A stretch of DNA of 64,000 nt from assembly GCA_009699245.1 (NCBI GenBank), contig WLOQ01000002.1, positions 124,001-188,000 of the forward strand, given 5' to 3'. The first letter of the stretch is position 1; the number at the start of each line of letters is the position of its first letter. The translations under genes were made by a program, and so were the position numbers. This document shows, piece after piece, positions 37,426 to 54,684 of the stretch. The notes below the pieces were generated by a model. The model saw only the letters and a program-made list of their open reading frames with translations. It was not told where the DNA came from and searched no databases. The DNA comes from Actinomycetota bacterium (GTDB lineage Bacteria; Actinomycetota; Thermoleophilia; Solirubrobacterales; Solirubrobacteraceae).

Positions 37426-38961
37426 ATGAGCGATCGCGCAGACTCCCGCCGCCGCGGCCTTGCAGTCGCGGGAGCGGCACTGGCCGGCGTGGTCGCCTAC
37501 GACCTGACACAGCGCCGCCACGCGATCCTGCGCAACTTCCCGATCGTCGGGCACCTGCGCTACCTGCTCGAGAGCGTCGGGCCTGAGGTGCGCCAGTACA
37601 TCGTCACGTCGAACAACGAGGAGCGGCCCTTCTCGCGTGACGATCGCGCCTGGATCTACACCTCCTCGAAGGGCCGCCGCAACACCTTCGGGTTCGGCAC
37701 CGACAACGAGATGGAGGCGGTCGAGGGCTACACGATCGTCAAGCACGCCGCGCAGCCCATGCCGGGCCCGGCCGACGGGACGATGGGCAGTGCGCCCGAC
37801 TTCGCACTGCCGGGGCCGAAGATTCTCGGCGGGGCGCACGGGCGCCGGCACGCATTCCGGCCGGCGTCCGCCGTCAACATCAGCGGGATGAGCTTCGGCG
37901 CGCTCTCGGGGGCGGCGATCACGGCGCTCAACCGCGGCGCGCTGGCAGCCGGGTGCTGGCACAACACCGGCGAGGGCGGTCTCTCGACGCACCACCTTCA
38001 AGGTGCCGACGTCGTGTTCCAGATCGGCACCGGGTACTTCGGCTGCCGCGACGAGCATGGGGCGTTCAACCTCGAGGCGCTGCGCGAGCGGGTCACGGAG
38101 GGGCCTGTGCGCGCGATCGAGATCAAGCTCTCCCAAGGCGCCAAGCCGGGCCTCGGCGGCATGCTGCCGGGCGCGAAGGTGTCCGCGGAGATCGCGCGGG
38201 TTCGGGGGGTTCCAGCAGGCGTCGACTGCGTGAGCCCCAACGCGCACAGCGCATTCCACACGGTCGACGAGCTGATCGAGTTCATCGAGCTGCTCGCGAG
38301 TGAGACCGGGCTTCCCGTGGGTATCAAGTCGGCTGTGGGCGAGCAGACCTTCTGGGACACGCTGACCGAGCGGATGGTCGCGACAGGCGGCGGCCCCGAC
38401 TTCGTCACCATCGACGGCGGCGAGGGCGGCACCGGCGCTGCACCCCTCGCGTTCACCGACCACGTCGCACTGCCCTTCAAGCTCGGGTTCGCACGTGTCT
38501 ACGGGACGTTCGCACGGGCGGAGCTCCAGGAGGACGTCGTCTTCATCGGCTCCGGAAAGCTCGGCCTCCCGATCAACGCGCTCAGCGCGTTCGCGCTCGG
38601 CGCCGACCAGATCAACGTCGGCCGCGAGGCGATGCTGAGCATCGGCTGCATCCAGGCGCAGCGCTGCCACACGGACCACTGCCCGACGGGCGTCGCGACG
38701 CAGAACCCCTGGCTCACGCGTGGACTCGACCCCGACGTGAAGGCGGTGCGCACCACCTCATACGTGCGCGCCCTGCGCGGCGAGCTCGGCCGACTGGCCC
38801 GCGCGTGCGGCGTCGCGCACCCGGCCTTCATGCACCCCGACCAGATCGAGCTGATCGGACAGGGGTTCCGGCACATCACGCTCACCGAGGCCTTCGCGTA
38901 CGAGGCTGACTGGCGCGAGGTGCCCGCCGGGCGCCGCGCCGAGATCAACGCGCTCACATGA
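37426..38961 (+). CDS. FMN-binding glutamate synthase family protein
   Basis: 511 residues with an N-terminal membrane helix at about 11-27, then the central/FMN domain of glutamate synthase: NISGMSFGALSGAAITALN, NTGEGGLSTHH, AKPGLGGMLPG, DGGEGGTGAAP and the 3Fe-4S cysteines in GCIQAQRCHTDHCPTG (C-x5-C-x4-C). There is no glutaminase domain and no partner small subunit, so it may be a stand-alone FMN/Fe-S oxidoreductase. TACACC six bases before ATG resembles the leaderless -10s. Its stop overlaps the CoA-transferase start by four bases. Confidence 0.88.
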   Translation: MSDRADSRRRGLAVAGAALAGVVAYDLTQRRHAILRNFPIVGHLRYLLESVGPEVRQYIVTSNNEERPFSRDDRAWIYTSSKGRRNTFGFGTDNEMEAVEGYTIVKHAAQPMPGPADGTMGSAPDFALPGPKILGGAHGRRHAFRPASAVNISGMSFGALSGAAITALNRGALAAGCWHNTGEGGLSTHHLQGADVVFQIGTGYFGCRDEHGAFNLEALRERVTEGPVRAIEIKLSQGAKPGLGGMLPGAKVSAEIARVRGVPAGVDCVSPNAHSAFHTVDELIEFIELLASETGLPVGIKSAVGEQTFWDTLTERMVATGGGPDFVTIDGGEGGTGAAPLAFTDHVALPFKLGFARVYGTFARAELQEDVVFIGSGKLGLPINALSAFALGADQINVGREAMLSIGCIQAQRCHTDHCPTGVATQNPWLTRGLDPDVKAVRTTSYVRALRGELGRLARACGVAHPAFMHPDQIELIGQGFRHITLTEAFAYEADWREVPAGRRAEINALT

Positions 38962-40244
38962 CCACCCCAAAGGTCCCCAGCGCCCAGCCCGCCGACGCGC
39001 TCCTCCAGCGCATCGAGCCCGGCGCCGACCTCATCGTCCCGCTCGCCAACGGGGAGCCCTCCGGACTGCTCGACGTCCTCGAGGACCACGCCGAGCAGCT
39101 CTCGGGCGTGCGCATCCACCAGATGCACCCACTGCACGAGCGTCGGTACATCCGCGGGGAGTTCCCGGGCCACCTGCGCCACGTGAGCTACTTCCTCTCG
39201 AGCGCTGACCGCCAGGCGTACCTCGATGGGCACTGCGACCTCGTCCCGAGCCACTTCTACGAGATGCCGCAGCTGCTGCGCCAGACGACGCGCTGCTCGA
39301 TGGTCCTCGCGGCGGCCAGCCCGCCCGATCGCCACGGGTTCTTCAGCCTGGGGACCAACGCCGACTACACGGCCGCGATGATCGGTCGGGCGCCGTTCTG
39401 GCTTGAGGTCAACGACCAGATGCCCTTCACGACGGGGCACAACGTGATCCACGTCTCCCAGATCGAGGGGTGGTCGCATGTGGACCGCCCGCTCGTGTCG
39501 GTCGAGCCTGCGGTGCCGGGCGCAGCGGACCGGCGGATCGCCGAGCTCATCGCCGAGCGCATCCCCGACGGAGCGACGCTCCAGACCGGCATCGGGGCGA
39601 TCCCAAACGCGGTCCTCGACGAGCTGCGCGATCACCGGGACCTCGGGCTCCACACCGAGCTGCTGACCGACGGAGCCATCGACCTCATCGACGCCGGGGT
39701 CATCAACGGCACCCGCAAGGTCCGGCGCCGCAACCGGCACGTGGCGACCTTCTGCCTCGGAACCGAGCGGCTCTACGACTTCCTGCGCGAGAACGAGGGC
39801 ATCGAGATGCTCTCGGTCGAGTGGGTGAACAACCCTGCGACGATCGCGCAGCAGCCGGACTTCGTCGCCATCAACGCCACGACGGAGATCGATCTCCTCG
39901 GGCAGTGCGCCTCCGAAACGATCGCGGGCCGCTACTGGTCCTCCAGCGGCGGTCAGGCCGACTTCGCGCGCGGCGCGATGGCCGCCGAGCGCGGTCAGGC
40001 CTTCATCGTCCTGCACGCGGCGACGACCTCCGGTCGCAGCAGGATCCGGGCGCAGCTGACGCCGGGGTCGGTTGTGACGACGACGAAGAACACCGTCGAC
40101 CATGTCGTCACCGAGCACGGCGTCGCGCGCCTGCGCGGGCGGTCGCTCGCGGAGCGCGCCCGGCTGCTGATCTCGATCGCGGCGCCCGAGCATCGCGACG
40201 ACCTCGAGCGCGAGGCGCTGGACCTGGGACTGCTTCATCGCTGA
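38958..40244 (+). CDS. Acetyl-CoA hydrolase/transferase family CoA-transferase
   Basis: 428 residues. Resembles 4-hydroxybutyrate/butyrate CoA-transferases: LQTGIGAIPNAVLDEL in the middle, the catalytic glutamate in NATTEIDLLGQ, and GQADFARGAMAAERGQ with the GxGG-like oxyanion region nearby (SSSGGQADF). Transfers CoA between acyl groups through a glutamyl-CoA intermediate in the cytoplasm. Translationally coupled to the FMN protein upstream; acceptor and donor unknown. Confidence 0.88.
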   Translation: MTTPKVPSAQPADALLQRIEPGADLIVPLANGEPSGLLDVLEDHAEQLSGVRIHQMHPLHERRYIRGEFPGHLRHVSYFLSSADRQAYLDGHCDLVPSHFYEMPQLLRQTTRCSMVLAAASPPDRHGFFSLGTNADYTAAMIGRAPFWLEVNDQMPFTTGHNVIHVSQIEGWSHVDRPLVSVEPAVPGAADRRIAELIAERIPDGATLQTGIGAIPNAVLDELRDHRDLGLHTELLTDGAIDLIDAGVINGTRKVRRRNRHVATFCLGTERLYDFLRENEGIEMLSVEWVNNPATIAQQPDFVAINATTEIDLLGQCASETIAGRYWSSSGGQADFARGAMAAERGQAFIVLHAATTSGRSRIRAQLTPGSVVTTTKNTVDHVVTEHGVARLRGRSLAERARLLISIAAPEHRDDLEREALDLGLLHR

Positions 40245-45010: not shown

Positions 45011-45793
45011 ATGACCTCCATCTCCGAGCTGTTCTCCCTCTCCGGCAAGCGCGCGATCGTCACCGGCGGCGGCGTCGGACTCGGCCTGCAGTTCGCCACC
45101 GGCCTCGCTGAGGCGGGCGCGGACGTCGTCCTCTGCGGGCGCAATGAGGAGCGCTGCATCGAGGCAGCGAACGCCATCGCGCAGGCCCACGGCGTGCGCG
45201 CCATCGGCGTGCGCTGCGACGTGCGCGACCCCGACTCGGTGAACGCCGTCGTCGCCACGGCGGTCGAGCAGCTCGGCGGGGTCGACATCCTCGTGAACAA
45301 CGCCGGCGCATCGTGGGGCGCACCGACCGAGGAGTTCCCGCTCGACGGCTGGAACAAGGTCATGACGGTCAACGTCACCGGCTCGTGGCTCTTCGCCCAG
45401 GCCGTCGGTCGCCACCTCGTCGAGGCGGGCCGCCCCGGCCGCATCATCAACCTTTCGTCCGTCCTCGCGCTCCAGGGCGTCAAGGCGGGCAGCGTCGACG
45501 CGATCGCCTACAACACGTCGAAGGGCGCGGTCATCTCGATGACCCGCGACCTCGCGGTCAAGTGGGCGCCCAAGGGGATCACGGTCAACGCGATCGCCCC
45601 GGGCTGGTTCCCTTCCGACATGAGCAACGTGTCGCTCGAGAAGAACAACGAGTCGTTCCTGGGCCGCATTCCGATGGGGCGGTTCGGGTCCGACGACGAC
45701 CTCAAGGGGCTCGCCGTCTTCCTCGCCTCCGACGCCGCCGCCTACGTCACGGGCCAGACGATCCTCGTCGACGGCGGGCTCGGCGTCAGCTGA
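45011..45793 (+). CDS. SDR family oxidoreductase (gluconate 5-dehydrogenase-like)
   Basis: 260 residues. VTGGGVGLGLQFATGLA is the cofactor loop; the arginine of LCGRNEER suggests NADP preference. NNAGASWG, NLSSVLALQG, catalytic AYNTSKGAV and LVDGGLGVS complete the classical SDR set. Similar in layout to gluconate 5-dehydrogenases and other carbonyl reductases. Substrate unknown. Converges on the B12 mutase subunit gene with a four-base gap. Confidence 0.87.
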   Translation: MTSISELFSLSGKRAIVTGGGVGLGLQFATGLAEAGADVVLCGRNEERCIEAANAIAQAHGVRAIGVRCDVRDPDSVNAVVATAVEQLGGVDILVNNAGASWGAPTEEFPLDGWNKVMTVNVTGSWLFAQAVGRHLVEAGRPGRIINLSSVLALQGVKAGSVDAIAYNTSKGAVISMTRDLAVKWAPKGITVNAIAPGWFPSDMSNVSLEKNNESFLGRIPMGRFGSDDDLKGLAVFLASDAAAYVTGQTILVDGGLGVS

Positions 45794-45797
45794 GCCC

Positions 45798-46229
45798 TCA
45801 GTCGACGGCGCTCTGGCGCGGCGACCCGAGCGCCAGCGTCCGGAACGTCTCGACGACCGCGGCGAGCGTCTCGCCGCCGCGGAAGACGGCCTTCACGCCG
45901 CATGCCTCAAGATCCGGGATGTCGAACGGGCGGATCGTGCCGCCCACGACGACCGGCAGCTCCTCGTGGCCCGCGTCGCGTAGCGCCTGGACGAGCGAGC
46001 GCGTCGTGTCGACCTGACCGCCGGACATGAAGCTCACGCCGATGACGTCGACGTCCTCCTCGATGGCGGTGCCGGCGATCTCATCGGCGACGCGGTAGTC
46101 GATCAGCACGACCTCCATGCCGTCGTCGCGCAGCGCCTTGGCGATCGTGCCGATCGCGCGGTCGTGGCTGTCGATGAAGCTCTTGGTGAGCAGGACGCGG
46201 GGAACGAAGCGGGGATCGTCGTTGGTCAT
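45798..46229 (-). CDS. B12-binding small subunit of an acyl-CoA mutase
   Basis: 143 residues, one cobalamin-binding domain. The base-off/His-on motif is present as KSFIDSHDRA: lysine, Asp and His match K-x3-D-x-H of methylmalonyl-CoA mutase, but the usual glycine of DxHxxG is alanine. GVSFMSGGQ replaces the SxL motif by SxM, and VVVGGTIRP gives the GG motif. It begins two bases after the large-subunit gene, as in two-chain isobutyryl- or hydroxyisobutyryl-CoA mutases. Confidence 0.88.
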   Translation of the reverse strand: MTNDDPRFVPRVLLTKSFIDSHDRAIGTIAKALRDDGMEVVLIDYRVADEIAGTAIEEDVDVIGVSFMSGGQVDTTRSLVQALRDAGHEELPVVVGGTIRPFDIPDLEACGVKAVFRGGETLAAVVETFRTLALGSPRQSAVD

Positions 46230-46231
46230 GG

Positions 46232-47917
46232 CTACTTGTTGGTCCCGAAGACATCGAAGAGGATGGCCTGCATCTCGCCGAGACTCGCATCGGCGAGCGC
46301 AGCGTCCACCAGGGCGGCGGTGCAGGAGCCGATCTCGCGACCGGCCATGACGTTCTCACCGGCCTCGCGCAGACGCGTGAGCGCGGCGTCGCAGGCGGCC
46401 TGGTCGCGCTGTGCCTTGACGCGGTTGAGGTCGTCGATCGCCATGCGCGCGACCGCCGGGTCGGGACGGAACACGTTGTGCTCCTCCGGCTCGTCGGTGA
46501 CGAAGCGGTTGACGCCGATGAGCGGACGCTCCCCGGTCTCGACCTCGCGGCGCCACTCGAACGCCGAAGCCGCGACCTCAGCGCGCGCCCAGCCGCTCTC
46601 GATGCACTCGATCAGGCCTCCCTGCTCGTCGATCTTCGCGATGAAGGCGAGGACCGCCTCCTCGACGTCGTTCGTCAGCGACTCGACGTAGTAGGAGCCG
46701 GCGAGCGGGTCGGTGACCTTCTTCAGCCCCTGCTCCTCGGCGATGATCTGGCTCGTGCGCAGCGAGAGCGTCACGGCCTCCTCGGTCGGGAGGCCGAGCG
46801 CCTCGTCATACGCGTTGACGGTCATGCCGTTGACGCCAGCCATGGCGGCCGCGAGTGCGCCGTACGCGTTGCGGATGATGTTGATCCGCGGCTGCTGCGC
46901 GGTCGCCAGCGAGCCGGCCGTCTGCGCGTGGATGCGCGCGCGCAGCGCGCCGTTCGTCGTGCAGCCGAAGCGCTCGGCGTTGATCTTCGCGAAGAGCTGG
47001 CGCAGCGCGCGCGTCTTGGCGACGTCCTCGAACAGGTCTTCACCGAAGCGCACGTGGAAGCCCATGCCGGCGGCGATCGGGTCGGTCTCGAGCCCGAGCT
47101 TCTGGGCCTCCTCGAGCACCGCGATGACGGAGGCGAGCGCGAGACCGACGGCCTGGACGTTCGTCGCCCCGGCCTCGCAGATGTTGTGCTCGCTGAAGGT
47201 GATCGTGCCGAAGTTCGGGACGTGCTCGGCGCAGTAGGCGCCGACGTCGACCGCGAGGCGGTAGCTGCCGCGCGGCGAGAAGTTCATGCCGCCGCAGTGC
47301 CCGAAGAAGTCGTAGATGTAGTTCGTGATGTTGCCCTTGAGCTGGTCGCCCTCGAACCCCATCCGCTTGGCCGCCGCGACGTAGAGCGCGAACATCGCCG
47401 GGGAGCCGGCGTTGCACACCATCGAGAAGTGCGTCTTCGTCAGGTCCTTGCCGGCCAGCAGGACCTCGTAGTCCTCGGTCTTGCAGACGGAGATGCCGGC
47501 GTCGCCGATGCTGCCCTCGACCCCGGGGTAGTCCGGGTCGAAGCCCATCGAACTCGGCATGTCGAAGATGATGTTGTAGGCCGCGCCGCCGAAGTAGCCG
47601 CGCGCGCCGCCCTCACGGTCGAGCAGGTCCATGCGCTCGCGCAGATTTCGGGCCATCCCGTAGCCGATGATCTGGAGATCCATCCACGGCTGGTGCTGGT
47701 AATGGACCGGGTAGATCCCGCGCGTGAACGGGAACTGCCCGGGCAGTGGCGCCTCGTCAAGACCGCGCGCCGCGAGGTCGGTCGAGTCGTAGACCGGCTG
47801 AACGGGGACGCCCGAGCGATTGATCGTCACGAAGTCCGTGTCGCCGTAGCGGTCCTTGACGGTCCGCTCCCATGCCACACGGGCCGCGGACGTCGTGGTC
47901 GAGCTGTCGATCGCCAT
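46232..47917 (-). CDS. Large subunit of a B12-dependent acyl-CoA mutase of unknown specificity
   Basis: 561 residues, TIM-barrel domain without the B12 domain. RGIYPVHYQHQPWMDLQ, FDMPSSMGFDPDYPGVEG and GYFGGAAYNIIFD align with the methylmalonyl-CoA mutase family. Compared with the Propionibacterium enzyme, the tyrosine at position 89 appears kept. Gln197 (TIQND to NITNY), Arg207 (MVRN to FGHC), Tyr243 and His244 (SGYHMQEAG to SEHNICEAG) are changed. The carboxylate clamp of methylmalonyl-CoA is therefore missing, so another 2-/3-carbon-branched acyl-CoA is likely. ATG 47917 follows TATCAT by six bases. Confidence 0.85.
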   Translation of the reverse strand: MAIDSSTTTSAARVAWERTVKDRYGDTDFVTINRSGVPVQPVYDSTDLAARGLDEAPLPGQFPFTRGIYPVHYQHQPWMDLQIIGYGMARNLRERMDLLDREGGARGYFGGAAYNIIFDMPSSMGFDPDYPGVEGSIGDAGISVCKTEDYEVLLAGKDLTKTHFSMVCNAGSPAMFALYVAAAKRMGFEGDQLKGNITNYIYDFFGHCGGMNFSPRGSYRLAVDVGAYCAEHVPNFGTITFSEHNICEAGATNVQAVGLALASVIAVLEEAQKLGLETDPIAAGMGFHVRFGEDLFEDVAKTRALRQLFAKINAERFGCTTNGALRARIHAQTAGSLATAQQPRINIIRNAYGALAAAMAGVNGMTVNAYDEALGLPTEEAVTLSLRTSQIIAEEQGLKKVTDPLAGSYYVESLTNDVEEAVLAFIAKIDEQGGLIECIESGWARAEVAASAFEWRREVETGERPLIGVNRFVTDEPEEHNVFRPDPAVARMAIDDLNRVKAQRDQAACDAALTRLREAGENVMAGREIGSCTAALVDAALADASLGEMQAILFDVFGTNK

Positions 47918-47923
47918 GACGCG

Positions 47924-47929
47924 ATGATA
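47924..47929 (-). promoter_or_regulatory. Candidate -10 (TATCAT) of the leaderless mutase operon
   Basis: On the minus strand TATCAT lies six bases before ATG 47917. This leaves no 5' leader, which excludes a cobalamin riboswitch directly upstream. Confidence 0.55.
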
Positions 47930-47962
47930 CCCGCGGATCGCCTGAGCAGCGGGGATCCGGGG

Positions 47963-47968
47963 TAGTCT
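47963..47968 (+). promoter_or_regulatory. Candidate -10 (TAGTCT) for the universal stress protein gene
   Basis: TAGTCT fits TANNNT, about 33 bases before ATG 48002. In contrast to the leaderless genes nearby, a Shine-Dalgarno (GGAG, 47992-47995) is present six bases before the start. Confidence 0.4.
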
Positions 47969-48578: not shown

Positions 48579-50300
48579 ATGTCTGAGAACAAGTTCGATT
48601 ACTGGTGGCTGAGCGGCATCTTCGTCGAGCCCGCGCCGCGCCCCACGGGGTTCGTCTCGAGCGACGCTGATGAGTTCGACGTGATCGTCGTGGGCACCGG
48701 CATGTCCGGGTTCGCCTCCGCGATCCACGCCCACGACCACGGCCGCTCGGTCCTCGTGCTCGAGGCGGCCGACGAGGTCGGCGGCACGACCTACAAGTCC
48801 GGCGCCGGCATGTGGGTCCCGAACAACCACAAGATGCGCGCGCTCGGCATCCACGATGACCGCGACGCCTGCCTCGACTTCATGGCAAAGGTCTCCTACC
48901 CGGGCGACTACGACCCGCAGGCGCCGCGGCTGGGCATGAGCGAGTGGCAGTGGGACCTCATGAACGAGTACTACGACAACGCGTCCGACGCGATCGAGGC
49001 GCTCCGTGACGCGGGCGCGCTGAACGTCACGTTCTTCCGCTCGTTCACGGACGAGTACCCGGCGATGGTGTCGTACAACTCGCACCTCGACAACTCGATC
49101 CAGGGCTACTACCGCCACCTCATGCCGCAGCGCCCGGACGGCGTCGAGGCGGTCGGCTGGGAGATGATCCGCCAGCTCGGCGAGGCCGTGAAGGCGCGTG
49201 GGATCGACGTCCGCACGGGCCACCGCGTCCAGGGCGTCATCCAGAGCCCGGCCGGCGAGGTCGTCGGCGTCCGCGCCACGACGGCCGATGGCGAGCAGGC
49301 GCTCTACGCGCGCCAGGGCGTCGTCTTCGGCACCGGCGGCTTCCCGCACAACCTCGACATCATCGAGCGCCACTGGCGCGGGCCGCTCTACAGCAGCTGC
49401 GCCGTCCCCACCGCACAGGGTGATTTCGTGACCATCGGCGAGGAGATCGGCGCCGAGCTCGGCAACATGAAGAGCGGCTGGTTCTACGAGGACCTGCTCG
49501 AGAAGGCCGCCCCGCACCGCGTCTGCATGGAGGGCGGCATCAACGTCCCGCCCGGCGACGCGATGATCTATGTGGACGCGACCGGCAAGCGCATCCTCAA
49601 CGAGAAGTCGATCTACCAGGAGCGCGCCCAGCACTTCTTCGAGCCGGGCGAGAACGGGGACTACCCGAACCGCGCGCTCTTCATGATCTACGACACGCAG
49701 CTCACGACCGACACGCGGCCGTGGCTGTTCCTCGACACGTTCATCGCGCCGAAGCAGTGGATCATCGAGGGCGCGACGCTCGAGGAGCTCGCCGCGAACA
49801 TCCAGGAGCGCCTGAACGGCCTCACGTCGGTGATCGGCGAAATGCACCTCGCTGCGGACTTCGCCGAGCAACTGGCCGCGACGGTCGAGCGCTTCAACGG
49901 GTTCGCCCGCAGCGGGACGGACGAGGACTTCCACCGCGGCGAGACCGTGCACGAGCACGACTGGAACGGGCCGGCGCGCGAGGGCAACGACAAGAACCGC
50001 ACGATGTACCCGTTCACCCAGTCGGGCCCGTACTTCTGCACCATCACGTGCGGCATGGTCCTCGACACGAACGGTGGCCCCAAGACCAACGGGCGCGCAC
50101 AGGTGCTGCGTGCCGACGGCAGCGTGATCCCGGGCCTCTACGGCGCGGGCAACTGCATCGCCAACGTCTCCGGCGAGGGCTACCTCTCCGGCGGCAGCAC
50201 GCTCGGGCCGGCGGCGACCTTCGCCTACTTGGCCGCAAAGAACGTCGCGCAGGAGCCGGTCCGTGACCTGGCTTCCGTGCGCGGCGCGGCGACCGCCTAG
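48579..50300 (+). CDS. FAD-dependent dehydrogenase, 3-ketosteroid delta-1-dehydrogenase-like
   Basis: 573 residues. The FAD-binding GxGxxG is VVGTGMSGFASAIHAHDHG near residue 36, with EAADEVGGTTYKSGAGMW after it. C-terminal GLYGAGNCIANVSGEGYLSGGSTLGPAATFAY matches the KstD-type tail (about 525-556), where a tyrosine and glycine polarise the 3-keto group. This is stronger KstD likeness than in the two paralogues downstream. It introduces double bonds next to a carbonyl in a cyclic substrate, if the family holds. Confidence 0.82.
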   Translation: MSENKFDYWWLSGIFVEPAPRPTGFVSSDADEFDVIVVGTGMSGFASAIHAHDHGRSVLVLEAADEVGGTTYKSGAGMWVPNNHKMRALGIHDDRDACLDFMAKVSYPGDYDPQAPRLGMSEWQWDLMNEYYDNASDAIEALRDAGALNVTFFRSFTDEYPAMVSYNSHLDNSIQGYYRHLMPQRPDGVEAVGWEMIRQLGEAVKARGIDVRTGHRVQGVIQSPAGEVVGVRATTADGEQALYARQGVVFGTGGFPHNLDIIERHWRGPLYSSCAVPTAQGDFVTIGEEIGAELGNMKSGWFYEDLLEKAAPHRVCMEGGINVPPGDAMIYVDATGKRILNEKSIYQERAQHFFEPGENGDYPNRALFMIYDTQLTTDTRPWLFLDTFIAPKQWIIEGATLEELAANIQERLNGLTSVIGEMHLAADFAEQLAATVERFNGFARSGTDEDFHRGETVHEHDWNGPAREGNDKNRTMYPFTQSGPYFCTITCGMVLDTNGGPKTNGRAQVLRADGSVIPGLYGAGNCIANVSGEGYLSGGSTLGPAATFAYLAAKNVAQEPVRDLASVRGAATA

Positions 50301-50363: not shown

Positions 50364-51551
50364 TCAGGCGGTGATGCCGGCCTCTTCGACCGTGTGCGAG
50401 TGCGCCGCGTCACCGGGCGCATCGCTCCAGCCGGCGGCGATCTTCAGCAGGATCTCCGGGCTGTACGACAGGATCTCGTCGTAGCGGCCCTCACGGACCT
50501 TCGAGACCCACTCGCCATCGGCGAGGTGCGCGCGACCGACGGCGACGAGATCGAACTCGCCGTTGTCGAAGCGCGTGATCAGGCGCGCGAGCGTCGCCTC
50601 CGTGTCGTTCTTCGTCGGCGCGCCCTCCCAGAGCTCGGACGCGAGGTCCGAGGTGAGGCCGACGCCGCCGACAGTGATGACGGGCGCGTCGGTGAACGTC
50701 TTCGCCCAGCCGGCGAGGCCGAGGTCGCTGCCGTCCCACTCGGGCGTGTCGAAGCGGCGCACGCTGACGTTGAAGAGGTCCACCCCGGCGTCGCGCAGCG
50801 TCTTCAGGATCAGCTCGAACTCCTGCGGCGACTGCGCGATCTTGCCGTCGAAGTCGATCTCCTTCCACTGCGAGAGCCGGTAGCCGATCGGGAAGTCGGG
50901 GCCGACCGCGTGACGGATCGCGCGCACGACCTCGGCCGGGAAGCGCAGGCGATTCTCAAGGGCGGCGCCGCCCCACTCGTCGTCGCGCACGTTCGTGTCC
51001 GCCCAGAGGAACTGGTCGAGCAGGTAGCCGTGCGCGCCATGAACCTCGACGCCGTCGCAGCCGAGGCCCTTCGCGGCAACGGCGGTGCTGACGTAGGCGT
51101 CGCGGATCTCGATCATCTCCGCGCGCGTCATCGGGCGACCCGACTCGGTCGAGCCGCTGGCCAGCCCGGACGGGCTCAGCGACTCACGCTCGAAGGTCTT
51201 GCCCTCCGGCGGGGTGCGCATCGACCCGGGGTGCCAGAGCTGCACGAAGATCTTCCCGCCCTGGTTCTTGACCCCGTCGACCATGCTCTTCCAGCTCGCG
51301 AGCGTCGAGGGCCACAGGCGCGTCGCCATCGGCTGCCAGTTGGCGGACCAGTGGTCGATCGCGGTGGACTCCGTGATGACGAGCCCCGCACCGCCGGCCA
51401 CGCGCGAGCTGTAGAAGTCCGCGAGGTCGCTGGTGGGGTCGCCGTCGCGCGACAGCGCCTGCTGCATGGCGGGCACGACGAAGCGGTTCGACAGCGTCAG
51501 CCCGTTGATCGTGATCGGCTCGAAGAGCCGCTCGATGTTGATGGTCGTCAT
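50364..51551 (-). CDS. Old yellow enzyme family NADH:flavin oxidoreductase
   Basis: 395 residues, a single FMN TIM barrel. LFEPITINGLTLSNRFVVPAM is the family N-terminus (about 8-28); IFVQLWHPG, the catalytic pair in VEVHGAHGYLLDQFL and NVRDDEWGG follow, then VITVGGVG and DLVAVGRAHLADGEW. No Fe-S/FAD extension, so not a full 2,4-dienoyl-CoA reductase. Probably reduces an activated C=C bond. ATG 51551 has TATGGT six bases upstream (leaderless). Divergent from the FAD dehydrogenase pair. Confidence 0.88.
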   Translation of the reverse strand: MTTINIERLFEPITINGLTLSNRFVVPAMQQALSRDGDPTSDLADFYSSRVAGGAGLVITESTAIDHWSANWQPMATRLWPSTLASWKSMVDGVKNQGGKIFVQLWHPGSMRTPPEGKTFERESLSPSGLASGSTESGRPMTRAEMIEIRDAYVSTAVAAKGLGCDGVEVHGAHGYLLDQFLWADTNVRDDEWGGAALENRLRFPAEVVRAIRHAVGPDFPIGYRLSQWKEIDFDGKIAQSPQEFELILKTLRDAGVDLFNVSVRRFDTPEWDGSDLGLAGWAKTFTDAPVITVGGVGLTSDLASELWEGAPTKNDTEATLARLITRFDNGEFDLVAVGRAHLADGEWVSKVREGRYDEILSYSPEILLKIAAGWSDAPGDAAHSHTVEEAGITA

Positions 51552-51641: not shown

Positions 51642-53162
51642 ATGCCCAAGAAGCCCAGCCCTGTGGACGTCGTCGTCGTCGGTTTCGGCGCGGCCGGAAT
51701 CGCCGCCGCGATCACCGCCCATGACGAGGGCGCGCGCGTCGTCGTCCTCGAGAAGATGGAGGAGCGCTGGGCCGGCGGCAACACCCGCGCCGCCGGACAG
51801 GTCTGGTACACGCCGTCGTCCCCGGAGCTCGCCAAGGCGTACCTGCGAGACCTCGAACAAGAGATGCCGGTGCCGGACGACGTCGCCGACGCGTGGGCGC
51901 AGGAGGTCTGCCGCAACAGCGCGTGGATCGAGGCGCGCGCCGAGGAGTCGATCGGCCACGTCGAGCCCGTCGAGGGCGACGACTTCACGGCGAACGACTA
52001 CGTCATCGACTCGTTCGCCGAAGCCGTGAAGCGCCAGACCGGCTGGGAGGTCCCCAACCGCGACGAGTTCCCCGAGTTCAACAACGAGGGCGGCACGGAC
52101 TACATCTACTTCGGCGGCAAGCAGGGCAACTCCCGCCTCTGGCTGCGCCTGCGCGGCGCGCTGATGAGTCGCGGGATCGAGGTGCGGTACTCCACGGCGG
52201 CGCAGGAACTTGTCACCGACAAGAAGGGCCGCGTGAGCGGCGTGCGCGTCAGCACGCCGCAGGGCGAGCAGGTGATCGAGGCGCGCCGTGGCGTCGTCCT
52301 CGCGTGCGGTGGGTTCGAGAACAACCCCGAGATGATCCGCAAATACCTCGGCATCCCCTACGCGACGCCGTGGGGCTCCCCGGCGAACACGGGCGACGGC
52401 ATCCGCATGGGCCAGGCGCTCGGCGCCGACCTGCAGAACATGTACCAGTACATGCCGTTCTTCGGGATCCGCATCCCGGGCGAGGAGGTCGGCGAGTTCA
52501 TCATGCCCGCCGGGCCCGCGCACATCCACGTGCGCAAGGACGGGCGTCGCTATCTCGACGAGACGACCCCGTACAGCCACGGCAAGTCGAAGATCGGCGG
52601 CAAGTACGAGTACTACCCGACGCCCTACGCCACCTGGACCGTCTTCGATGAGACCGTGCGCACCGGGCCGCCGCTGACGATGCCGCGCGAGGCCTACCCC
52701 GCCGGCTGGCTGAAGCTCGTCAAGGGCTACACCTGGAGCGAGGGCAGCGTCGAGGAGATCGCCAAGGGCTGGATCGCGAAGGCCGACACGATTCGCGAAC
52801 TCGCCGAGAAGCTCGGCGTCGACCCGGACGGTCTCGAGGCCGAGGTCGCGCGCTACAACGCCGCCGCCGAGCAGGGCGAGGACCCGTACTTCGGGCGCCC
52901 GGGCGTCGCGATGGCACCGATCAAGGAGCCCCCGTACTACGGGTACGAGTGGGGCAATCTGATCATCAACACGATGGGTGGACTGCGCAAGAACGGCAAG
53001 GCGCAGGTGCTGCGAGTGAGCGGGGATGCGATCCCGGGCCTCTACGCAGCGGGCGAGATCGCCTCCACTTACACTTGGGCGCTCTCCGGCGGCCAGTCGA
53101 TCGGCGACGCGATCTCCTTCGGGCGGATCGCCGGCCGCAACGCCGCCAACGGCAAGGGCTGA
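51642..53162 (+). CDS. FAD-dependent dehydrogenase/fumarate-reductase-like (tandem paralogue 1)
   Basis: 506 residues. FAD site VVVGFGAAGIAAAITAHDEG and EKMEERWAGGNTRAAGQVWY, then GVVLACGGFENNPEM in the middle and GLYAAGEIASTYTWALSGGQ SIGDA-type C-terminus (about 470-500). Related to tricarballylate dehydrogenase and fumarate-reductase-like flavoproteins; the KstD tyrosine before the C-terminal GG is absent. The next gene is a close paralogue. Probable partner in oxidation of a cyclic or keto-acid substrate. Confidence 0.82.
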   Translation: MPKKPSPVDVVVVGFGAAGIAAAITAHDEGARVVVLEKMEERWAGGNTRAAGQVWYTPSSPELAKAYLRDLEQEMPVPDDVADAWAQEVCRNSAWIEARAEESIGHVEPVEGDDFTANDYVIDSFAEAVKRQTGWEVPNRDEFPEFNNEGGTDYIYFGGKQGNSRLWLRLRGALMSRGIEVRYSTAAQELVTDKKGRVSGVRVSTPQGEQVIEARRGVVLACGGFENNPEMIRKYLGIPYATPWGSPANTGDGIRMGQALGADLQNMYQYMPFFGIRIPGEEVGEFIMPAGPAHIHVRKDGRRYLDETTPYSHGKSKIGGKYEYYPTPYATWTVFDETVRTGPPLTMPREAYPAGWLKLVKGYTWSEGSVEEIAKGWIAKADTIRELAEKLGVDPDGLEAEVARYNAAAEQGEDPYFGRPGVAMAPIKEPPYYGYEWGNLIINTMGGLRKNGKAQVLRVSGDAIPGLYAAGEIASTYTWALSGGQSIGDAISFGRIAGRNAANGKG

Positions 53163-53172
53163 GGAGGCCAAC

Positions 53173-54684
53173 GTGAGCACACGCAGCAGCAGCGTCGACG
53201 TCGTCGTCATCGGATTCGGAGCGGCGGGCATCGCCGCGGCGATCACCGCCCATGACGAAGGCGCCCAGGTCGTCGTCCTTGAGAAGGCGCCGCCCGAGAC
53301 CGCCGGCGGCAACACCCGCGCCGCCGGGCAGGTCTGGTACTCCCCGCACGACGAGGAGCTCGCGAAGGAGTACCTGCGCGGCCTCGCCTACGACATGCCG
53401 ATCCCCGACGACGTCGTCGACGCCTGGGCGAGCGAGCAGGTGCGCAACAACGACTGGATGACCGCGCGCGCCGCCGAGGCGCAGGGCCACATCGACGTCG
53501 ACCCGCGCGACCCGTTCGGCCAGGGCGTGACGTTCGAGGCGCACACCTACCAGGAGGCCGTCAAGCGGCAGACCGGGTGGGACGTGCCGCGCGACGAGTT
53601 CCCCGAGTTCAACAACGAGGGCGGCACCGAGTGGGTCACCTTCGGCGGGACGCAGGGCCACTCGCGCGTGTGGCTGCGCCTGAAGGCGGCGCTCGAGCAG
53701 CGGGACGTCGAGATCCGGTACAGCACTGCGGCGACCGCGATCGTCACCGACGGCGACGGCCGCGTGACCGGCGTCGAGGTCCTCGGGCCCGACGGCGCTG
53801 AGACGATCACGGCGCGCCGCGGCGTCGTCAACGCAGCCGGCGGCTTCGAGAACAACCCGGAGATGATCCGCACGTATCTCGGACTCCCGTACGTCACCCC
53901 GTGGGGCACCCCGCACAACACCGGCGACGGCATCCGGATGGGCCAGGCGCTCGGCGCGGATCTGCAGAACATGTACCAACACATGCCCATGTTCGGGATC
54001 GCGCTCGAGGGCCTGGAGACCGGCGAGTTCGTCCAGCCCGGCGGGCCCGCGTTCATCCAGGTCGCGCAGGATGGTCGGCGCTTCATCTCCGAGGCGACGG
54101 CCTACCGCCACGGCAAGTCGACGATCGGCGGCCGCCTCGAGTTCTATCCCCACCGCGCCATGTGGACCGTCTTCGACGAGACCGTGCGCACCGCCGGCCC
54201 CCTCACCGCCCCGCACGAGGCGTGGGCGGCGGGCTGGGAGAAGCAGGTCGTCGGCTATGTCTGGAGCGACGACAACATGGTCGAGATCGAGAAGGGCTGG
54301 ATCACGAAGGCCGACACGATTCGCGAGCTCGCAGAGAAGCTCGGCGTCGACCCGGACGGCCTCGAGGCCGAGATCGAGCGCTGGAACGCCGCATGCGCGC
54401 AGGGCGAGGACCCGTACTTCGGGCGCCCGGCCGAGATGATGGCGCCGATCACCGAGCCCCCCTACTACGGCTACAAGTGGGGCAACCTGCTGATCGCCAC
54501 GATGGGCGGCCTGCGCAAGAACGGCAAGGCGCAGGTGCTGCACGTCAGCGGGCAGCCGATCCCCGGCCTCTACGCGGCGGGAGAGATCTCCTCGACGTTC
54601 ACGTGGGCGCTCGGCGGCGGTCAGTCGATCGCCGACGCGATCGGCTTCGGCCGCATCGCCGGACGCGAGGCAGCAGCGGGCTAG
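53173..54684 (+). CDS. FAD-dependent dehydrogenase/fumarate-reductase-like (tandem paralogue 2)
   Basis: 503 residues from GTG 53173, preceded by GAGGAGG. Long stretches match the preceding gene product: VDVVVIGFGAAGIAAAITAH, EAVKRQTGW, ADTIRELAEKLGVDPDGLEAE and MGGLRKNGKAQVL, so this is a tandem duplication with later divergence. A short insertion (DPRDPFGQG) distinguishes it. The two may form a heteromer or act on different substrates. Its TAG overlaps the convergent P450 stop inside CTAG. Confidence 0.82.
   Translation: MSTRSSSVDVVVIGFGAAGIAAAITAHDEGAQVVVLEKAPPETAGGNTRAAGQVWYSPHDEELAKEYLRGLAYDMPIPDDVVDAWASEQVRNNDWMTARAAEAQGHIDVDPRDPFGQGVTFEAHTYQEAVKRQTGWDVPRDEFPEFNNEGGTEWVTFGGTQGHSRVWLRLKAALEQRDVEIRYSTAATAIVTDGDGRVTGVEVLGPDGAETITARRGVVNAAGGFENNPEMIRTYLGLPYVTPWGTPHNTGDGIRMGQALGADLQNMYQHMPMFGIALEGLETGEFVQPGGPAFIQVAQDGRRFISEATAYRHGKSTIGGRLEFYPHRAMWTVFDETVRTAGPLTAPHEAWAAGWEKQVVGYVWSDDNMVEIEKGWITKADTIRELAEKLGVDPDGLEAEIERWNAACAQGEDPYFGRPAEMMAPITEPPYYGYKWGNLLIATMGGLRKNGKAQVLHVSGQPIPGLYAAGEISSTFTWALGGGQSIADAIGFGRIAGREAAAG

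What the first reader, a model, noticed from the sequence alone, without database searches (positions are those of the whole stretch)
46232..47917. B12 acyl-CoA mutase with a replaced substrate pocket
Relative to methylmalonyl-CoA mutase, the positions of Gln197, Arg207, Tyr243 and His244 read Thr, Cys, His and Asn. The changes match neither methylmalonyl- nor isobutyryl-CoA mutase, so a new substrate is likely. Separate B12 subunit and a neighbouring oxidative cluster suggest catabolism of a branched or cyclic acid.
Basis: partly seen in the sequence, partly recalled or inferred. Interest (0 to 1): 0.62.

Follow-up and report, generated by a model that had tools for sequence, protein, structure and literature searches.

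The report
B12 mutase with rebuilt substrate site
A rare bacterial vitamin-B12 enzyme of the methylmalonyl-CoA mutase fold keeps its B12 machinery but has lost nearly every residue that its relatives use to grip their CoA-bound substrate, so it probably rearranges the skeleton of a different and still unknown molecule.

Summary
The gene is on the minus strand (46232-47917, 561 aa) beside a separate B12 subunit (45798-46229). Gln197, Arg207, Tyr243 and His244 of methylmalonyl-CoA mutase (MCM) read Thr, Cys, His and Asn in gapped alignments.

Five proteins (63-66% identical to the window's; nearest other relatives 37-38%) share the same replaced pocket: the window, a Solirubrobacterales MAG, Conexibacter, Amycolatopsis and a Sphingobium plasmid. 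They form one clade (100/100) outside the MCM, 2-hydroxyisobutyryl-CoA mutase (HCM) and ethylmalonyl-CoA mutase (ECM) rows. They keep 1-2 of 13 recalled CoA-side residues (known classes 6-13) but conserve residues around adenosylcobalamin.

A short-chain dehydrogenase (SDR) recurs beside the mutase in all five loci. In three it is fused to MeaB, the mutase's G-protein chaperone.

Most likely it is an active B12 radical mutase with a new substrate, perhaps terpenoid or alicyclic and perhaps not a CoA thioester, coupled to the SDR. No activity was tested and the substrate is unknown.

The parts
46232..47917 (-). large subunit of an AdoCbl-dependent mutase, MCM fold, 561 aa, with replaced substrate/CoA site
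   Evidence: PF01642 E=1.7e-139; TIGR00641 397.6 bits, above cut-off 303.8; residue table
45798..46229 (-). separate small B12-binding subunit, 143 aa; stop of the large-subunit gene and start of this one are 2 bases apart
   Evidence: TIGR00640 89.1 bits, above cut-off; PF02310; DxH motif DSHDRA; 61-68% identical partners in the other four loci
45011..45793 (+). short-chain dehydrogenase/reductase, 260 aa, convergent neighbour (4 bases between the genes); counterpart of the SDR fused to or following MeaB in the other loci
   Evidence: PF13561/PF00106; 39-44% identity to the SDR half of MeaB-SDR in L004/L005/L006 and to the SDR of L007
47669..47704 (-). codons of residues 72-83: family motif HYQ[HY]QPWMDLQI, replacing MCM M-Y-x-x-R-P-W-T-I-R-Q-Y (includes R87->L81, Y89->I83)
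   Evidence: alignment of 5 family members against canonical mutases; coordinates
47573..47575 (-). codon of N115, at the position of MCM Ser114
47294..47332 (-). codons of residues 196-208 (NITNYIYDFFGHC): T195->N, Q197->T, D199->Y, R207->C
47183..47188 (-). codons of H244-N245, at the positions of MCM Tyr243-His244
48579..50300 (+). KstD-like FAD-dependent dehydrogenase; neighbour, link to the mutase not shown
   Evidence: PF00890; below the NCBIfam equivalog cut-offs; not found beside the other members
50364..51551 (-). NADH:flavin oxidoreductase (OYE type), 395 aa; neighbour, weak link only
   Evidence: 30% identity to the oxidoreductase next to the Sphingobium mutase operon; coordinates

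Best explanation
The two minus-strand genes encode a two-subunit adenosylcobalamin-dependent carbon-skeleton mutase of the methylmalonyl-CoA mutase fold. Proposed working: the small subunit holds cobalamin base-off/His-on; homolysis of the Co-C bond in the barrel of the large subunit gives the 5'-deoxyadenosyl radical, which abstracts a hydrogen; a group then migrates between neighbouring carbons. The AdoCbl-facing residues are kept, but the side of the barrel that in all characterised relatives holds the CoA thioester has been rebuilt with a different, invariant residue set, so the substrate is not one of the known acyl-CoAs and may not be carried on CoA. The SDR that is fused to, or encoded beside, the mutase or its MeaB chaperone in all five loci most likely oxidises the rearranged product, or supplies the ketone that is rearranged. 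From the other loci the pathway is probably catabolism of a terpenoid or alicyclic compound. Shown (sequence): fold, residues, clade, operon and fusion. Inferred: activity, radical mechanism, SDR coupling, compound class. Unknown: the substrate.
For: Fold and B12 subunit. Family of five, 62-65% identity in alignment, with a gap to the next relatives at 37-38%. Clade 100/100 on the longest inner branch (2.1-2.2), outside the MCM, HCM and ECM rows, also after two long-branch rows are removed. Of 71 columns invariant in 12 canonical mutases, 42 are kept in all family members and 29 are changed; the changed ones include R87, S114, T166, T195, Q197, D199, Y243 and H244, the kept ones F117, E247, Q330 and E370. 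Recalled CoA-side positions retained: 1-2 of 13 against 6-13 in known classes; cobalamin-side 5-6 of 8 against 3-8. DxH motif in the small subunits. MeaB-SDR fusions in L004, L005 and L006 with intact Walker A and YxxxK motifs; separate MeaB then SDR directly downstream in L007. AtuA with acyl-CoA carboxylase genes in L007 and Conexibacter, a carboxyltransferase in Amycolatopsis; a monooxygenase with the Baeyer-Villiger fingerprint in L007; lipid-transfer-type thiolase and ChsH2-like OB protein in L004/L006. Rare and scattered: 3 of 399 genomes of the class, 1 of 80 Amycolatopsis.
Against: No activity, structure or ligand data. The AlphaFold model is too poor to use (mean pLDDT 58). The CoA-contact list is recalled from database annotation, not recomputed from coordinates. 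Tyr75 is kept, and Arg283 in four of five. Many CoA-handling genes surround the other four members, so CoA esters are plentiful in the pathway. In the window the SDR is convergent, not co-transcribed, MeaB is on another contig, and AtuA was not detected (a search whose control was uninformative).
Confidence: 0.6

Rival explanations
1. It is still an acyl-CoA mutase, for the CoA thioester of a branched or cyclic acid, with a relocated or remodelled CoA grip.
For: CoA ligases, acyl-CoA dehydrogenases, CaiB-type transferases, thiolases and carboxylases lie near the other four members; every characterised enzyme of the fold uses CoA esters (general knowledge); Tyr75 is kept, Arg283 in 4 of 5; IcmF already drifts at many of these sites (6 of 13 kept).
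Against: R87, S114, T195, Q197 and H244 are kept in all sequences of known CoA-using classes aligned, including IcmF and ECM, but lost in all five family members. The conserved core module has no dedicated CoA ligase, whereas HCM operons carry hcl (PMC7176365).
Confidence: 0.3
2. A catalytically dead or regulatory homologue.
For: Loss of the near-universal His244; non-catalytic beta subunits exist in the family (general knowledge).
Against: Residues around adenosine and cobalamin (E247, Q330, N366, E370) and the DxH-bearing small subunit are kept; the replaced pocket is itself invariant across two phyla; a dedicated MeaB is kept in four of five loci.
Confidence: 0.06
3. An AdoCbl radical enzyme of another reaction type (elimination or dehydration, as in diol dehydratase) on the MCM fold.
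For: The His244 position is Asn and the pocket is polar (H72, N115, N196, T198, H244, N245); an SDR acting on the product would also fit.
Against: No enzyme of this fold is known to do this (general knowledge); no sequence link to dehydratases was seen.
Confidence: 0.04

Closest known systems
2-hydroxyisobutyryl-CoA mutase (HcmAB; structure 4R3U)
   Same: Best match among solved structures (E=1e-98); separate large and small subunits; Ile at the position of MCM Tyr89; mutase genes near a G-protein chaperone gene
   Different: HCM keeps R87, S114, T195, Q197, D199, Y243 and H244 and has Asp at position 116 (Ile here); different clade; HCM operons carry a CoA ligase (PMC7176365), here an SDR instead
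Methylmalonyl-CoA mutase (MCM)
   Same: Fold; residues around AdoCbl (E247, Q330, N366, E370)
   Different: About 30% identity; Tyr89, Gln197, Arg207, Tyr243, His244 and most recalled CoA-side residues replaced; B12 domain on a separate chain; far below the equivalog cut-off (337.7 of 876 bits)
Isobutyryl-CoA mutase / IcmF
   Same: Fold; Asn at position 361 in both
   Different: IcmF keeps R87, S114, T195, Q197, H244 and is a fused B12-GTPase-mutase chain; here the parts are separate and MeaB is fused to an SDR instead in three loci
Ethylmalonyl-CoA mutase (ECM)
   Same: Fold
   Different: ECM keeps R87, Q197, R207, Y243 and H244 and carries its own B12 domain; separate clade
Sphingobium TomMM15-type mutase (AP027315.1, 301663-303384; uncharacterised)
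   Same: Also lacks R87, S114, Q197 and H244; has its own B12 subunit and MeaB, and a phosphotransferase and acyl-CoA dehydrogenase nearby
   Different: Separate lineage (44% identical to an Acetoanaerobium mutase) with different replacement residues

Membership tests
MCM superfamily, substrate domain (PF01642 / TIGR00641) | Profile match above the curated cut-off over the whole domain | tested here: met
   PF01642 466 bits, residues 34-558; TIGR00641 397.6 against 303.8
AdoCbl base-off/His-on B12 subunit | DxHxxG-type motif with cobalt-ligating His | tested here: met
   D-S-H in all five small subunits (DSHDRA); the final G is A; TIGR00640 89.1 against 57.5
Methylmalonyl-CoA mutase | Tyr89, Gln197, Arg207, Tyr243, His244 | tested here: not met
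   I, T, C/S, H, N in the family
Methylmalonyl-CoA mutase | Equivalog score and clustering with MCM | tested here: not met
   337.7 of 876 bits; outside the MCM clade
Isobutyryl-CoA mutase / IcmF | Equivalog score; IcmF residues (Phe at 89, Gln at 207, His244 kept); IcmF domain fusion | tested here: not met
   191.3 of 1500 bits; I, C/S and N at these positions, separate chains
2-hydroxyisobutyryl-CoA mutase | Ile at 89 together with Asp at 116 and His244 | tested here: not met
   Ile present, but Ile at 116 and Asn at 244
Ethylmalonyl-CoA mutase | Clustering with ECM; canonical R207/Y243/H244 | tested here: not met
Pivalyl-CoA mutase, RcmAB, alkylsuccinyl-CoA-type mutases | Clade membership | not tested
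   Authenticated sequences were not to hand; by general knowledge these act on CoA esters
Acyl-CoA mutase (any) | Residues that bind the CoA moiety | tested here: inconclusive
   1-2 of 13 recalled contact positions kept against 6-13 in known classes; the list is recalled, no usable structure
AdoCbl carbon-skeleton mutase | Isomerisation of a substrate with AdoCbl | not testable with these tools
   needs purified protein

The most novel reading that the evidence does not exclude
An MCM-fold AdoCbl mutase that acts on a free, non-CoA substrate, for example a cyclic or branched ketone or hydroxyketone of a terpenoid pathway, moving the carbonyl carbon to a neighbouring methyl or methylene radical (a Dowd-Beckwith-type ring change), with the product handed to an SDR held on the mutase's own G-protein chaperone.
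Probability: 0.3. Interest if true: 0.85.

Novelty: new variant of a known kind. Interest (0 to 1): 0.6.

Why it matters
By general knowledge, characterised enzymes of the methylmalonyl-CoA mutase fold use CoA thioesters and keep a histidine at position 244. A conserved subfamily that keeps the B12 machinery but has lost that histidine and most of the CoA-side signature would show that the fold can be moved to other chemistry. It would be a new starting point for skeletal-rearrangement biocatalysts and would fill an unknown step in breakdown of terpenoid-like compounds. The MeaB-SDR fusion gives a direct handle on the next step of the pathway.

Tried and rejected
Misalignment or wrong frame: rejected, aligned anchors and five concordant members. 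AlphaFold model: mean pLDDT 58 from four sequences, not used for pocket claims and not sent to fold search. Cobalamin riboswitch or other Rfam RNA near any member: none at gathering threshold. Viral contigs: no members. AtuA in the window's genome: no match, but the control did not ring. Literature on Sphingobium WTD-1: isolated as a chloramphenicol degrader, which does not explain this cluster. Papers on Conexibacter DBS9H8: none. Enzymatic Dowd-Beckwith ring expansion with B12: nothing relevant found. The HcmA structure paper (PMC4392272) is not held. KstD-like flavoenzymes and P450 as part of the system: not supported, since they do not accompany the other members.

Full report
WHAT IS THERE. 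The finding's interval holds one gene on the minus strand, 46232-47917, 561 aa. It is an MCM-superfamily substrate domain: PF01642 E=1.7e-139, TIGR00641 above its cut-off but MCM and IcmF equivalogs far below theirs; the closest solved structure is 2-hydroxyisobutyryl-CoA mutase 4R3U, E=1e-98. Directly downstream lies the separate B12 subunit (45798-46229), and converging on it, four bases away, an SDR (45011-45793).

THE OBSERVATION. In gapped alignments with three solved MCMs, HCM, an annotated IcmF, two sequences recognised here as ECM, the two paralogues of the same genome and other homologues, the claimed replacements hold: Q197T, R207C, Y243H, H244N. Neighbouring anchors align. Both paralogues in the same genome have the canonical pocket; one of them (L002) is HCM-like.

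A SUBFAMILY, NOT A FREAK. Four more members were found: a Solirubrobacterales MAG (L004), Amycolatopsis echigonensis (L005) and Conexibacter sp. DBS9H8 (L006) by a genome scan, and Sphingobium sp. WTD-1 on a conjugative plasmid (L007). Identity to the window is 62-65% in alignment A1; the next relatives stand at 37-38%. The replaced residues are invariant in all five except C208, which is Ser in Sphingobium. In maximum-likelihood trees the five form one clade (100/100) on the longest inner branch (2.1-2.2 changes per column), outside MCM, HCM and ECM rows; the result holds after removing the long-branched IcmF and Pseudosulfitobacter rows. In the first tree one long Pseudosulfitobacter row joined the stem, which the program flags as possible long-branch attraction. 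The family is rare: 3 of 399 genomes of the window's class, 1 of 80 Amycolatopsis, 1 of 397 in that order, none in viral contigs. At the thresholds used, the mutase, the SDR and the KstD-like neighbour are absent from all 16 same-genus genomes searched, several of them incomplete. The Sphingobium island has Tn3-family transposases on both sides. This points to horizontal transfer of an accessory catabolic module.

WHAT IS KEPT AND WHAT IS LOST. Of 71 columns invariant in 12 canonical mutases, 42 are kept in all family members and 29 are changed. Kept are F117, E247, Q330 and E370; N366 is also kept, though not invariant in ECM. Changed are R87, S114, T166, T195, Q197, D199, Y243 and H244. Using the list of substrate/CoA contacts that I recall from the UniProt annotation of P. 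shermanii MCM (recalled, not recomputed), the family keeps 1-2 of 13, other classes 6-13 (IcmF the lowest); for cobalamin-side positions it keeps 5-6 of 8, others 3-8. The small subunits keep the DxH motif. So AdoCbl binding and homolysis look intact while the CoA side is rebuilt. How a substrate sits in the new pocket cannot be said: the structure prediction failed.

THE CONSERVED MODULE. Large subunit, small subunit and an SDR recur in all five loci. MeaB is fused N-terminally to the SDR in L004, L005 and L006, with Walker A and YxxxK motifs intact, and MeaB and SDR follow the mutase directly in L007; in the window's genome the only full-length MeaB match is on another contig. Since MeaB docks on its mutase (the human homologue pair is shown in PMC10356863), the fusion would place the SDR at the mutase. 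Inference: the SDR handles the mutase's product or substrate, a secondary alcohol/ketone pair.

THE PATHWAY. Three loci carry acyclic-terpene or methylcrotonyl-type genes: AtuA and acyl-CoA carboxylase in L007 and Conexibacter (44-50% identical), a carboxyltransferase with an AtuA-like neighbour in Amycolatopsis. L007 adds a monooxygenase with the Baeyer-Villiger fingerprint FxGxxxHxxxW, a phosphotransferase next to an acyl-CoA dehydrogenase, and SnoaL-like proteins. L004 and L006 add a lipid-transfer-type thiolase with a ChsH2-like OB protein and CaiB-type CoA-transferases. This suits catabolism of terpenoid or alicyclic compounds, but no gene names the substrate, and the window itself lacks these genes nearby; its KstD-like, OYE and P450 neighbours may belong to something else.

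MECHANISM, WITH LIKELIHOODS. Active AdoCbl radical mutase with a new substrate: likely (about 0.85-0.9 over CoA and non-CoA versions together). Substrate not gripped as a CoA thioester: about even. Ring change of a free cyclic ketone: a speculation compatible with SDR, monooxygenase and terpene genes, not evidence-based beyond that. Dead homologue or other radical chemistry: unlikely.

NOVELTY. Same fold and cofactor logic as MCM/HCM, but the defining substrate-site features of every class tested are not met. PCM, RcmAB and alkylsuccinyl-CoA mutases were not tested. New variant of a known kind.

Noticed in passing
L035:15664-17385 (-) = AP027315.1 301663-303384; 12 Sphingobium plasmids, 97-100% identical: A second, separate mutase lineage that also lacks the canonical pocket (R87->T, S114->I, Q197->V, Y243->A, H244->Q) in tomato-associated Sphingobium and S. 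herbicidovorans, with its own B12 subunit and MeaB, and P450, phosphotransferase and acyl-CoA dehydrogenase genes nearby.
   Followed up: partly
L024:3965-5656 (+), Pseudosulfitobacter plasmid pSMR1-4: Another unusual mutase: R207->N and Y243->Q but R87, Q197 and H244 kept; encoded between its B12 subunit and MeaB.
   Followed up: no
L004:2441-4018, L005:4217-5785, L006:12074-13711: MeaB GTPase fused to a short-chain dehydrogenase in one open frame, a domain combination I do not know from elsewhere.
   Followed up: partly
L002:1477-3571 (-), own genome contig C14: HCM-like mutase large subunit next to a SnoaL-like protein and, upstream, an FAD monooxygenase-like gene in the window's own genome.
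   Followed up: no
own genome C1:276922-278598 (L038), C14:201486-203111, C2:29828-31507: Three further relatives of the window's KstD-like flavoenzyme in a 1.95 Mb genome, one with an in-frame TAG.
   Followed up: no
window 51642-53162 (+) and 53173-54684 (+): Two adjacent, closely similar FAD_binding_2 dehydrogenases, probably a tandem duplicate, next to a P450 (54681-55967, -).
   Followed up: no
window 46478-47965 (+): Long antisense ORF (495 aa) over the mutase gene, a high-GC artefact; the mutase frame, not this one, is the conserved protein family in the other loci.
   Followed up: partly
window 37426-40244 (+): Glutamate-synthase-like FMN protein overlapping by 4 bases a CoA-transferase related to butyryl-CoA:acetate CoA-transferase, below curated cut-offs.
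   Followed up: no
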